The notes under the pieces: model-generated
Databases searched by the model: none
What the model saw: the letters and a program-made list of their open reading frames with translations, nothing else
Told to the model about the DNA's origin: nothing
Shown: positions 1 through 64,000 of the stretch, piece after piece
How positions within the stretch are numbered: the stretch's first letter is position 1
Layout: each line of letters begins with the position of its first letter
Made by a program: the position numbers and the translations under genes
Source: Tetradesmus obliquus
Lineage: Eukaryota; Chlorophyta; Chlorophyceae; Sphaeropleales; Scenedesmaceae
Assembly: GCA_030272155.1 (NCBI GenBank)
Contig: CP126206.1
Span: 4,200,001-4,264,000 of the forward strand
Length of the DNA stretch: 64,000 nucleotides
Direction of reading: 5' to 3'

Positions 1-1750
1 CCCTAAACCCACATCACGGCCTGCACGCACTGGTTGCAAACGACCTTAAGCACTAAACCCTGCCCACCAAAACACATATGACATATAAACATCGATTTTG
101 CATTCCCAAAACCTCTCAACCCACCTGAGCGCGCCAGTTGAGGACGGCGTGGCTGCTCCAGGGCAGCATGCTGCTCAGCACACCGCCCTTCGCAAACCCT
201 GAGCCTAAAGCAGGGTTTACACACTGGTCTAATAACCCCCAAAGCCCTAAACCCTAAAGCCACCTGAGCGCGCCTGTTGAGGATTGCGCGGCTGCTCCAA
301 GGCAGCATGCCACTCAGCACATCTGCCTCCTCAAACCCTGAGCCCACAGCAGGGTTGTACTGGCGTAGCAAACCCTTCAAGGCCCTAAACCCTGCCCACC
401 TGTGTGCGCCTGTTGAGGACAGCGTGGCTGGCTGCTCCAGGGCAGCATGCCACTGAGCACATCCCCCTCCACAAACCCAGAGCCCACACCAGGGTTTAAG
501 CACTGGCTTTAAACCCCCAATTTCCAAGCCCTGAACCCTAAATCCACCTGTGCGCGCCTGTTCAGCATGGCGTGGCTGGCTGCTCCAGGGCAGCATGCCG
601 CTCAGCACATCTCCCTCCTCAAACCCCAAGCCCACATCGGGGTTAAGAAACTGCTTCTCAACCCCCAAGCTCTAAAACCCTGCCCACCTGGCATGGCTGC
701 TCCAGGGCAGCATGCCACTCAGATCGCTCTTGCGCTGCGGTTTTACACATGTAGGGTTTTGCCCATCCCCAGGACAGTATAACCCACCTGTGCGCGCCTG
801 TTGAGCACAGCATGGCTGCTCCGGAGCAATACATCAACTTTGCCTGATTCGGGCGGGCAGGCACATCATTTTTGTCATAGATGTTTGTTCTGTGGTTTTT
901 GATTCGCGATTGCCAGCAGACCTTGGGTGCTGCTGAGTGCCTGCCTCGAGTTCATGGTGCAGCTAAGGCACTGCGGGGCACTGATGCAGTGCACCGAACC
1001 ACGGAGCTGCTCCGAATGTGTTCCGTGTATCAAAGTATGTTTATAAATATATTTTGGGCGTGTAATACAACGTATTACGGCAATTTTGTGATACTGAAGA
1101 AATAGGGAACGATTAGGGAATCCATAATAGGGAAGACATTTGTCCCTAATAGGGATTCCCTAAGCGTTCCCTATCCACGATATAGGGAACGGCTTAGGGA
1201 ATGGTTAGAGGAAGCAGTTGTAAGTGCAGTGCCCAGGGCAGCATGCCGCTCAACACATCCCCCTCCTTCAACCCTGAGCCCACATCAGGGTTGACACACT
1301 GGTACTAAACCCCAAGCCCTAAACCCTAAACCCACCTGTGCGCACCTGTTGAGCATAGCATGGCTGCTCGAGAGCAGCATGCTGCTCAGCACGTCTCCCT
1401 CCTCAAACCCCGAGCCCACAGCAGGGTTTACACACTGGTACTAAACCTGGAGCCCTAAACCCTGATCACACCTGTGCACGCCTGTTGAGGATGACATGGC
1501 TGCTCCAGGGCAGCATACCACTCAACACATCCTCCTCCTCAAACCCAGAGCCCAAACCAGGTTATATGCACTGGTTTCGAACCCCCACAGCCCTGAACCC
1601 TAAACCCACCTGTGCCCGCCTGTTCAGAATGGCGTGGCTGCTCTACGGCAGCATGCCGCTTACGACATCTCCCTCCTCAAACCCTAAGCCCACATCAGGT
1701 TTCACAAAAGCTAAACACTAAACCCCCAATCCCTAAACCCTGATCCCACC
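1..1750 (-). repeat. Tandem echoes of the 3' end of MDR exon 3 (about ten, in two blocks)
   Basis: Units of about 130-150 bp repeat near 121, 262, 401, 545, 690, 785, 1215, 1335, 1470 and 1610. On the minus strand each encodes a diverged copy of EEGDVLSGMLPWSSHAVLN and ends in a donor (CAG|GTGGG). They lie downstream of the real exon (1914-1750). The intron part of each unit contains CCCTAAACCC motifs, which makes the block look like subtelomeric satellite. The block is split by an unrelated insert at about 841-1202. Confidence 0.85.
841..1202. other. Insert interrupting the MDR echo array, with TAGGGAA inverted motifs
   Basis: This AT-richer stretch shares nothing with the flanking units. 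Its right end carries three copies of a 20-bp motif of the form ATAGGGAACGCTTAGGGAAT, at 1105-1125, 1155-1174 (inverted) and 1182-1202. The last two form a hairpin with a 7-nt loop. No coding capacity is recognised. It may be the remnant of a small non-autonomous transposon; no target duplication was found. Confidence 0.45.
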
Positions 1751-3973
1751 TGTGCGCGTCTGTTGAGCACAGCATGGCTGCTCCAAGGCAGCATGCCGCT
1801 CAACACATCTCCCTCCTCAAACCCTGAGCCCACATCAGGGCCAGCACGCAGCACCCGGGCAAGGCCGCGGCTGCTGAGGGGTTCGCCAGGTGTAAAGGGC
1901 TGCCTGTAGTAGCCCTGTGTGTTAGGGGGATAGTGGTTGCAGCAGCAGCAGCAGAGTCAGAGGTACATGTTTTATGTTAGCCGGCAGTACCACCAGCACT
2001 AAAAATGCATCACCCGGGCAATGCCGCGGCTGCTCAGCGGCTGGCCTGGTGTGAAGGGCTGCCTGTAGTAGCCCTGGAGGCAGCAGCAGCAGCAGAAGCA
2101 GCAGCAGCAGCAGCAGCAGCAGCAGCAGCAGCAGAGTCACCTGTGCATGTTTTTATGTTTGCCGGCAGCTCCACCAGCAGCAAAATGCACCACCCGGGCA
2201 AGGCCGCGGCCTCTAAGCGGCTGGCCTGGTGTGAAAGGCTGCCTGTAGTAGCCCCGGCGGAAAAAACAGCAGCAGCAGCAGCAGCAGCAGGGCTACATGC
2301 AGTGTTTCAAGGGTTGCTAGTAGTACACGCGCGGCAAAACTGCACCAGCTAGAGTAGCAGCACACCCACAGCTGCTGACCAGTACTCCCATTAGAACACA
2401 CATCCCACTCTTTCTCCGCTGGGGCAAAAGCACCGCCACACTGCAAATACCGCCACCACGCCTCCTATGCCCACCTTGCTGTCGCGCATCATGCCCCTCA
2501 AACGCATAGCTGCTGGGTGAAACAGACGCGGCACCAATCACTGGACCCTTCAACACACCACACCCGCTGCTTCCCGACCACCTTGCTGTCGCGCATCATG
2601 CCCCCGCCCGCATCATGCCCCCGCCGCTTCCCGCCCACCTTGCTGGCGCGCATCATCGTGTTACGTAACTGTTACATAACGCACTCGCTGTCCCCTTGGG
2701 CACCACGCCTCCTATGCCCACCTTGCTGTCGCGCATCATGCCCCTCATGTATGGGTCCACACTCAGGTAGCTGCGGCAGCAGCAGCAGCAGCAGCAGCAG
2801 CAACAGCAGCAGCAGCAGCAGCAGCAACAGCAGCAGCAGCAGCAGCAGCAACAGCAGCAGCAACAGCAGCGCAGCAGCAGGAGTTGGTGTGGTGATGGCA
2901 TGACTGCAGCATATGAAAGAAAGTATGTGCTGTTTACTGTGCTCTGTGCACTACTAGGCACAATGCACAGCATGGCCACTCACAGCAACTCCACCAGGAC
3001 GTCGCTCTCCCCCATTGCTTGGGGGTCAATGCTGCTGGCAGCCACCTCAAAGTCAAACGGCAATGCATATGCTAATGCTCAGTCTGCAGACATCAGTGCA
3101 CTCACAGCAGCTCCAGCAGGATGTCGCCCTCCCCCATCTGCTTTGGATCAAAATCGCCAGCAGCAACATGCACTAAGCACATCATACCAAACATGCAACA
3201 GTGGACTGCTCACAGCAGCTCCACCGAGATGCCGCCGTCCCACATCTGTTGAGAGTCGATGCACTATCCACTGTTCACTATCCGTCGCCTGCTATCCACC
3301 ATGCACTGTGCACTACGCATCAGACGCACCTGCTGACAAAGAGTTTATCACACTCACAGCAGCTCCACCAGCGTGTCGCCCTCCCCCATCTGCTTTGAGT
3401 TGATGCTGCTTGCTGCCACTTAGGAGTCATACAGCAATGCATTTATGGTAATGCTCAATTTGCACACATCACATAATTGCACTCACAGCAGCTCCACCAG
3501 GATGTCGCCCTCCCCCATCTGCTTTGGAACCATGCTGCTGGACGCCACCTCAAAAGTCACACAGAAATGCATATGCTACTGCTCAGTTTGCACACATCAC
3601 ATCATTGTACTCACAGCAGCTCCACCAGAATGTCTCCCTCCCCCATTTGCTGTGGATCGATGCTGCTTGTAGCCACCTCAAAAGTCATCACCAGCAACTG
3701 GCCTGTCATCCACATGCACTGTTCACAATGCAATGTTCACAATGCAGAAGTCTTTGCCTTTTGCTGAGGGTTTTGGCACTATGCACTAGTCAACATGCAC
3801 CGTGCACTCGGCATCTTTGCACATCTTCGTACTCACAGCAGCTCCACCAGGATGTCACTCGCCCCCATTGCCTGGGGGTCAATGCTGTTTGTAGCCACCT
3901 GGAAGTCGTCCGCAGCAACCGCCCTGTCCTCCACATGAGCCTTCCAAAGCACGCTGGTGACCTGCAGAGCCAT
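1750..3973 (-). CDS. MDR-family NADPH-dependent oxidoreductase (alkenal/prostaglandin reductase type), 5' part
   Basis: Three exons join in phase: 3973-3837 (45 codons plus 2 nt), 2770-2722 (17 codons with the split codon) and 1914-1750 (55 codons), giving the first 117 residues; the rest lies beyond the left edge. Seen: ATG at 3973, donors GTGAGT, GTGGGC and GTGGGA, and acceptors CCGCAG and ACACAG. The motif YLSVDPYMRGMM is diagnostic of the zinc-independent MDR group that reduces alkenals and 15-keto-prostaglandins with NADPH. It is followed by PFTPGEPLSSRGLARV and FEEGDVLSGMLPWSSHAVL, the matching segments of the N-terminal GroES-like domain. Expected role (family knowledge): cytosolic detoxification of reactive alkenals or a quinone-type reduction; the substrate cannot be told. 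All three exons are surrounded by repeated partial copies of their own ends. The catalytic Rossmann domain is not in the window, so activity cannot be judged. Confidence 0.85.
2010..2260 (-). repeat. Echoes of the 5' end of MDR exon 3 (two copies)
   Basis: Two units lie upstream of exon 3. The copy at 2073-2014 keeps a CCTCCAG acceptor after a CTG run and encodes GYYRQPFTPGQPLSSRGIAR. The copy at about 2254-2194 encodes the variant PFTPGQPLRGRGLARV and has lost the AG acceptor. Both differ from the real exon by several substitutions. Confidence 0.8.
2440..2721 (-). repeat. Echoes of the 3' end of MDR exon 2 (three copies)
   Basis: Copies of the segment encoding MMRDSK followed by GTGGGC occur at about 2620-2655, 2567-2600 and 2460-2500, downstream of the real exon (2770-2722). 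They share parts of the following intron as well. Confidence 0.75.
2774..2880 (-). repeat. CTG triplet tract before the 3' splice site of MDR exon 2
   Basis: An interrupted (CAG)n run on the plus strand reads (CTG)n on the gene strand and leads straight into the CCGCAG acceptor of exon 2. It stands where a polypyrimidine tract would be expected. Confidence 0.8.
2980..3700 (-). repeat. Echoes of the 3' end of MDR exon 1 (six copies)
   Basis: Copies begin near 2985, 3103, 3205, 3352, 3480 and 3600. Each encodes a diverged form of FEVATSIDPQAMGEGDILVELL ending in a donor (CT|GTGAGT). All lie downstream of the real exon 1 (3973-3837). Spacing is irregular, and the intron sequence between copies has diverged more than the exon-derived part. 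Confidence 0.85.
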
Positions 3974-63987: not shown

Positions 63988-64000
63988 GTGTGTGCTGCTG

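What the first reader, a model, noticed from the sequence alone, without database searches (positions are those of the whole stretch)
1..64000. Exon-edge echo arrays: introns built from tandem partial copies of neighbouring exon ends
In seven host genes on both strands the introns carry diverged copies of flanking exon ends: MDR, Gln/Ala-rich, MAPR, CMC1-like, beta-helix, GNAT, catalase (bL35 shows 5' echoes only). Copies of the 5' end lie upstream and keep the AG acceptor. Copies of the 3' end lie downstream and keep the GT donor, or the stop in last exons. I count well over 60 echoes. Local tandem duplication across splice junctions is known as a route to intron gain, but I know of no genome where it repeats at nearly every exon edge. 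It implies an active process that copies junctions while the splicing machinery still finds the true exon.
Basis: partly seen in the sequence, partly recalled or inferred. Interest (0 to 1): 0.92.

Follow-up and report, generated by a model that had tools for sequence, protein, structure and literature searches.

The report
Exon-end echo arrays in algal introns
In this green alga many introns contain rows of partial copies of the ends of neighbouring exons, spaced about 136 bases apart; the pattern recurs across the genome, looks like old tandem duplications that the intact exon keeps refreshing, and may help explain how such introns become long.

Summary
65 curated exon edges (catalase and MDR in the window, 14 proteasome genes elsewhere) carry 74 direct copies on the predicted side, 2 on the other side (both from one 49-bp exon) and 0 inverted. 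In 20 further 10-kb loci 36 alignments follow the rule and 0 break it. "Nearly every edge" holds for catalase (9 of 13) and MDR (4 of 5), not for proteasome genes (16 of 46); the window is unusually rich. The positional rule follows from tandem duplication across an edge plus the need to keep the exon, so it does not imply a process aimed at splice sites; splice dinucleotides survive in 63 of 70 mapped copies, not significantly more than exon dinucleotides. Two things are unexpected. Of 66 repeat alignments in 21 inter-exon stretches, 59 touch a curated exon end or its echo, and the other 7 lie beside exons the Pfam search had missed, 2 clearly and 5 probably. And the exon half of a copy stays similar whether or not its intron half is related, which plain neutral duplication does not explain. 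Best reading: old tandem duplications, amplified locally, whose exon half is re-copied from the constrained exon. That last step is inferred.

The parts
59585..59797 (+). catalase exon 1 of the curated set (earlier coding exons not sought)
   Evidence: junctions and frame
59436..59490 (+). copy of catalase exon 1 5' end, AG kept
60144..60231 (+). catalase exon 2
60024..60063 (+). copy of catalase exon 2 5' end, AG kept
60595..60701 (+). catalase exon 3
60485..60537 (+). copy of catalase exon 3 5' end (TG in place of AG at the aligned position)
60768..60946 (+). two copies of catalase exon 3 3' end (60768-60828, 60886-60946), GT kept
61309..61440 (+). catalase exon 4
61168..61221 (+). copy of catalase exon 4 5' end, AG kept
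61526..62065 (+). three copies of catalase exon 4 3' end (61526-61579, 61757-61821, 62003-62065), GT kept
62323..62458 (+). catalase exon 5
62522..62720 (+). two copies of catalase exon 5 3' end (62522-62587, 62656-62720), GT kept
62925..63075 (+). catalase exon 6
63147..63212 (+). copy of catalase exon 6 3' end, GT kept; about 97% on the exon side, no similarity past +6
63836..63987 (+). catalase exon 7
63366..63741 (+). three copies of catalase exon 7 5' end (63366-63435, 63520-63589, 63672-63741), ~154-bp unit, AG kept
3837..3973 (-). MDR exon 1
   Evidence: window coordinate = 64001 minus reverse-strand coordinate
2978..3674 (-). five copies of MDR exon 1 3' end, all with GTGAGT
2722..2770 (-). 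MDR exon 2 (49 bp)
2465..2656 (-). three copies of MDR exon 2 3' end, GT kept
1750..1914 (-). MDR exon 3
2014..2254 (-). two copies of MDR exon 3 5' end (AG kept in one)
260..1669 (-). nine copies of MDR exon 3 3' end (two stop short of the junction; the seven others keep GT)
24326..24540 (-). two copies of MAPR exon 1 3' end (intron of the real exon starts at 24636)
   Evidence: read by eye; BLAST pairs
22771..23260 (-). MAPR last exon (23132-23260) and two downstream copies of its 3' end carrying TAG
   Evidence: read by eye; TRF
26452..27057 (+). 87-bp x 7 array; units end in TAG, read by eye as copies of a terminal coding end
56033..56289 (-). bL35 exon 5' end and its upstream copy

Best explanation
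The echoes began as local tandem duplications of roughly 130-bp segments spanning an exon end. Shown: copies are direct, local and on the side that tandem duplication requires; copies of one edge often share their exon-side endpoint; some whole units are repeated as arrays; real exons are under coding constraint and echoes are nearly free of it. Inferred: strand slippage or unequal exchange among the repeats amplifies them, and recurrent gene conversion or template switching from the intact exon keeps overwriting the exon half of each copy while the intron half diverges. Because only the exon and the splice-site consensus are constrained in the source, similarity ends at about +5/+6 of the donor and -4 of the acceptor. 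Duplications that would break the exon are lost; those across a 3' end leave the first donor in place and may be tolerated better, which could be why 3' echoes are commoner (inferred).
For: Side rule: 74 versus 2 in 65 curated edges, 40 versus 0 alignments at Pfam-anchored proteasome exons, 36 versus 0 in 20 fixed-position loci. Successive junction spacing has median 136 bp, n = 70. Same-edge copies share the exon-side endpoint within 3 bp in 53% of pairs against 9% shuffled (maximum 22% in 2,000), and still in 38% of 53 pairs whose intron flanks are unrelated against 8% between edges: common founders. Whole-unit copies exist (37 of 91 echo-echo pairs, exon half 0.86, intron half 0.83). Yet in the other 54 pairs the intron half is 0.57 (unrelated flanks 0.51; out of register 0.55) with the exon half still 0.84. 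Exon and flank identity are uncorrelated (rho 0.09, n = 70; -0.03, n = 91), and 21 of 70 and 36 of 91 pairs lie below all 60 neutral simulations. In edges with two or more copies, echo-only changes fall 39/37/54 on codon positions 1/2/3; exon-only 2/2/12; changes shared by some echoes 10/1/28, as if groups of echoes keep older synonymous states of the exon.
Against: No conversion tract was observed directly. Identity does not fall toward the far end of the copies (0.917 versus 0.909, p = 0.36). Flanks in the low class show no in-register residue (0.558 versus 0.546, p = 0.07 pooled over 105 pairs; p = 0.42 over 28 edges), so their common origin is inferred from shared endpoints alone. Only 6 of 29 edges have every exon-echo pair below all simulations. 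No age gradient with distance (p = 0.73). Intron halves of related pairs have more gaps than exon halves (63 versus 16), so indels add to the contrast. No DNA of a second strain or species was available. Pairs within an array are not independent; only the per-array and per-edge tests allow for that.
Confidence: 0.5

Rival explanations
1. Plain neutral tandem duplication: ~130-bp duplications fall anywhere, selection keeps those that leave the exon intact, and copies simply decay; introns look empty of their own repeats because both intronic copies decay.
For: Position rule, spacing and whole-unit arrays with nearly equal divergence in both halves; near-neutral echo changes; exon-side extents spread over 18-101 bp, as random placement would give.
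Against: Exon and intron halves are decoupled; in 15 of 16 arrays the exon half is better kept even between two echoes; 59 of 66 repeat alignments in 21 inter-exon stretches touch an exon end or echo and the rest lie beside missed exons, 2 clearly and 5 probably.
Confidence: 0.25
2. A junction-limited copying process, perhaps linked to splicing or to pre-mRNA-templated repair, copies an exon end plus the splice-site consensus and inserts it nearby.
For: Similarity drops sharply after donor +5/+6 and acceptor -4; young copies with unrelated flanks, e.g. catalase exon 6 and proteasome C15 exon 2.
Against: Stop-containing last-exon ends are copied too (probably); same-edge copies with unrelated flanks often share exon-side endpoints; whole-unit copies include long intron stretches.
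Confidence: 0.13
3. Echoes are kept by selection, as alternative exons or decoy splice sites.
For: Splice sites retained in 63 of 70; unpolarised codon-position bias of differences 7.8/4.4/16.3%.
Against: Once polarised, echo-only changes are near neutral, with 4 stops among 82 amino-acid-changing ones; splice dinucleotides not significantly better kept than exon ones; related echo pairs show similar divergence in both halves; the catalase protein aligns without insertions.
Confidence: 0.08
4. Assembly artefact.
For: Tandem arrays are a known trouble spot (general knowledge).
Against: The copies are diverged with private changes: of 74, 19 differ from the exon by under 5%, 33 by 5-12% and 22 by more; 17 contigs for 104.7 Mb, the longest seen 11.1 Mb; seen on seven contigs in the proteasome set.
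Confidence: 0.02

Closest known systems
Tandem duplication of an intron 3' part plus exon 5' part in a potato RdRp gene (PMC4974935; abstract start and found passages seen)
   Same: One duplication spanning an acceptor, copying intron end and exon start
   Different: A single event that created a new intron; here copies at 29 of 65 curated edges, both exon ends, in arrays with decoupled exon and intron halves
Tandem genomic duplication / AGGT model of intron gain (reviewed in PMC3443670, passages seen; Gao & Lynch 2009 and Hellsten 2011 only as cited there and in PMC4974935)
   Same: Tandem duplication inside genes supplying splice sites
   Different: There the duplicated exon segment becomes the intron; here the echoes lie inside introns, set off from the real edge by filler
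Minisatellites (recalled)
   Same: Tandem units, apparent higher-order patterns, local expansion
   Different: Anchored at exon ends; one end of the array is a constrained coding exon
Introners (PMC9860276; abstract start and two passages seen)
   Same: Mass modification of introns, found among other lineages in green algae
   Different: Introners are elements copied into many genes; the two intron stretches tested here match only their own locus

Membership tests
Tandem duplication across exon-intron junctions | Direct, nearby copies on the side required by duplication across the edge | tested here: met
   74 versus 2 copies, 0 inverted
Tandem duplication across exon-intron junctions | Whole unit homologous, both halves equally diverged | tested here: inconclusive
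   True of 37 of 91 echo-echo pairs, not of 54
AGGT intron-gain model | The intron itself is the duplicated exon segment, flush with the junctions | tested here: not met
   Median spacing 136 bp with exon parts of 18-101 bp, so filler separates echo and edge
Introners | Similar intron sequences at many unrelated loci | tested here: not met
   Two stretches (276 and 1,117 bp) match only their own locus; the tool skips very common words
Mutually exclusive duplicated exons | Complete exons with coding constraint | tested here: not met
   Copies are partial and echo-only changes near neutral
Minisatellite | Tandem array of units | tested here: met
   TRF arrays, up to 9 copies at one edge
Minisatellite | Copy number varies between individuals | not testable with these tools
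   No second strain held
Concerted evolution of exon and echoes | Copies more alike than their flanks allow | tested here: met
Concerted evolution of exon and echoes | Observed conversion tracts or strain polymorphism | not testable with these tools
   Needs a second genome or mutation-accumulation lines

The most novel reading that the evidence does not exclude
Exons act as standing templates that keep rewriting partial copies of their own ends in the neighbouring introns, so that introns grow by exon-anchored arrays and the echoes record past synonymous states of the exon.
Probability: 0.4. Interest if true: 0.85.

Novelty: new variant of a known kind. Interest (0 to 1): 0.7.

Why it matters
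In the passages I saw, junction-spanning duplication is described for single genes. Here it marks about a third of the edges (16 of 46) of a gene family that was not chosen for it, and more in the window genes, giving many replicates in one genome. If the exon half really is refreshed from the exon, the arrays would show how introns lengthen, how the spliceosome ignores near-perfect decoys and how short-range gene conversion works, all testable by comparing strains. A published table gives Tetradesmus obliquus, whose GC content matches this genome, a mean intron length of 462 bp against 230, 284 and 302 bp in three other Sphaeropleales (PMC5966456, passage seen); if this genome is that species or near it, echo arrays are a candidate cause.

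Tried and rejected
A home-made gene finder called echoes as exons and was dropped for hand-placed junctions. A subtelomere effect was dropped on weak grounds: two proteasome genes near contig ends (C14 at 21 kb, C1 about 64 kb from the end) had no repeats. A tape-recorder order (nearest copy youngest) was not supported (p = 0.73). The unpolarised codon-position bias looked like coding selection on echoes; polarising largely removed it. Special retention of GT/AG was not significant.

Errors found and mended: minus-strand loci were merged wrongly (mismatches printed); searches do it correctly, and the minus-strand rows are not used. The codon table was trained partly on minus-strand matches read on the wrong strand; it fed the cores and the frames. 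retrains it on 25 correctly oriented matches (3 with stops skipped): frames change at 0 of 65 edges, the polarised counts are identical, the random-locus count becomes 36 with and 0 against (35 and 1) and the window count 53 and 12 (44 and 9). The flank-extent columns and the residual-homology means are unreliable (alignments ran on or into other copies) and are not used.

Limits of the counts: the 21 stretches lie between neighbouring curated exons, and where the Pfam match skips positions (C6, C8b, and also C10, C14, C9d) they can hold unmodelled exons. The C8b missed exon is clear; the C6 one was recognised by recall of proteasome sequences and is only probable. The C8b exon 2 echo (score exactly 40) is weak but counted. 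The catalase exon 7 3' edge had 2 bp to search and is left out of 'testable'. Ten literature searches listed no title or abstract start describing such arrays; the library lacks most subscription journals and all bioRxiv preprints, so this does not show absence from print.
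Full report
What the source is. The window is C16:4200001-4264000 of a 104.66-Mb genome in 17 contigs, 57% GC (counts).

The observation. Self-comparison of the window shows 179 direct and 3 inverted repeat pairs, 169 of the direct ones within 1 kb. Tandem Repeats Finder lists arrays of many periods, a good share of the long ones at about 105-155 bp. In catalase the true exons join into one open frame that aligns without gaps over 326 aa to a 492-aa catalase, so the copies are not part of the protein.

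Curated edges. I placed splice junctions by hand in catalase (7 exons), MDR (3 exons) and 14 proteasome genes found with Pfam PF00227. Searching 60 exon bases plus 10 intron bases against the flanking intron gives 58 copies at 17 of 35 3' edges and 16 copies at 12 of 30 5' edges on the predicted side; 2 on the other side (from the 49-bp MDR exon 2, whose query is the whole exon) and 0 on the reverse strand; 0 of 3,841 shuffle scores reach the threshold. By set: catalase 9 of 13 testable edges, MDR 4 of 5, proteasome 16 of 46, in 8 of 14 genes. A proteasome gene whose whole domain lies in one exon (C4) has no repeats in its locus.

Genome-wide. Using only Pfam-matched stretches as exon anchors, 5' ends are copied upstream 6 times and downstream 0, 3' ends downstream 34 and upstream 0, counting alignments (2 inverted hits). 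In 20 fixed-position 10-kb loci on contigs C1-C6, with mechanical coding cores, the counts are 26 3'-down, 10 5'-up and none against, at 27 ends of 158 cores in 10 of 20 loci; a further 77 of 115 near repeats touch no core, and 6 alignments cover whole cores. There are 14 inverted and 17 distant direct hits in those loci. The same pass on the window gives 53 with and 12 against, five of the twelve explained under the observation check. Density varies: 9.8-51.1% of bases in local direct repeats in six 10-kb window pieces against 0-43.1% in the 20 loci, median 4.1%, with 5 of 20 at zero. The window is therefore rich, not unique.

Why the rule is not evidence for targeting. A tandem duplication across an acceptor leaves the intact exon attached to the downstream copy, and one across a donor leaves it attached to the upstream copy. 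The rule follows. Retained AG/GT follows too: 63 of 70 splice dinucleotides are kept against 290 of 350 exon dinucleotides (p = 0.16). The spacing is narrow: 70 successive junction distances have median 136 bp.

What is unexpected, first: exon anchoring. In 21 stretches between neighbouring curated exons (15.9 kb) 59 of 66 repeat alignments involve an exon edge or an echo; the 7 others lie in two stretches. In one of these (C8b, 2 alignments) an exon missed by the Pfam search is plain, with two copies of its end; in the other (C6, 5 alignments) one is probable. So no repeat is shown to be purely intronic. Nine of the 21 stretches, up to 1,415 bp long, have no repeat alignment at all; some of these may also hold unmodelled exons.

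Second: decoupling. At 3' edges identity to the exon is mostly 0.8-0.95 over 50 exon bases and 0.81-0.94 over donor +1 to +5, then falls to about 0.6 against a baseline of 0.507. Between two echoes the exon half is also better kept, in 15 of 16 arrays (p = 0.0005). Echo pairs fall into two classes: 37 with related intron halves and nearly equal divergence on both sides (0.86, 0.83), and 54 with unrelated intron halves (0.57) but the exon half still 0.84. Exon and flank identity are uncorrelated; 21 of 70 exon-echo and 36 of 91 echo-echo pairs fall below all 60 neutral simulations (indel rate taken from the related pairs). Plain duplication and decay does not give this.

Third: which copy is constrained. 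Counting changes private to one side, at edges with two or more copies, the exon has 2/2/12 at codon positions 1/2/3 and the echoes have 39/37/54, with 4 stops among 82 amino-acid-changing ones, so echoes evolve almost freely. Changes shared by some but not all echoes are 10/1/28 (p = 0.001 against singletons), as expected if groups of echoes were copied from the exon at different times (unchanged). Pairs from one array are not independent.

Choosing a mechanism. Copies of one edge share their exon-side endpoint within 3 bp far more than shuffled (53% versus 9%), even when their flanks are unrelated (38% versus 8% between edges). That points to few founding duplications per edge rather than repeated independent insertions. 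Stop-carrying copies of a last-exon end (MAPR; probably 26452-27057) speak against a splicing-coupled source. Both support old tandem duplications, amplified locally, with the exon half kept alike by exchange with the exon. Conversion tracts were not seen and no relative was available, so this step is inferred; there is also no gradient of identity within copies and no residue of homology in the unrelated flanks.

The 3' bias (58 versus 16 copies) fits a simple selective filter: after a 3' duplication the first donor is still the right one, after a 5' duplication the first acceptor is the wrong one. This is inference.

Relation to the known. A potato gene shows a duplication of intron tail plus exon head that made a new intron (PMC4974935, passages); tandem duplication is a reviewed route to intron gain (PMC3443670, passages). 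Here copies sit inside introns at many edges with decoupled halves. Introner-like dispersal was tested for two stretches and not found.

Noticed in passing
window 105-1840: The intron half of the MDR exon 3 array contains TTTAGGG-like (telomere-type) repeats in many units.
   Followed up: no
window 13231-13602: Weak DDE_3 endonuclease match (24.8 bits, below the 28.6 cut-off), near an open 263-aa stretch without a Pfam match at 11663-12451: possibly a transposon relic.
   Followed up: partly
window 6488-7339: Long leucine-rich-repeat coding stretch on the minus strand; one search lists no near direct repeats there.
   Followed up: partly
proteasome C9c exon 1 (L021) and C15 exon 1 (L026) 3' arrays: Divergence from the exon alternates along the array (6.7, 15.8, 3.4, 17.2, 3.7% and 10.6, 5.7, 11.4, 5.9%), as in higher-order repeats of two-unit blocks.
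   Followed up: partly
proteasome C10 exon 2, L012: The real donor reads GTGATA while its two counted echoes read GTGAGG, closer to the usual donor.
   Followed up: no
L032, L044, L045: Repeat-bearing 10-kb loci with one coding core each; their direct repeats could not be tied to exons here.
   Followed up: no
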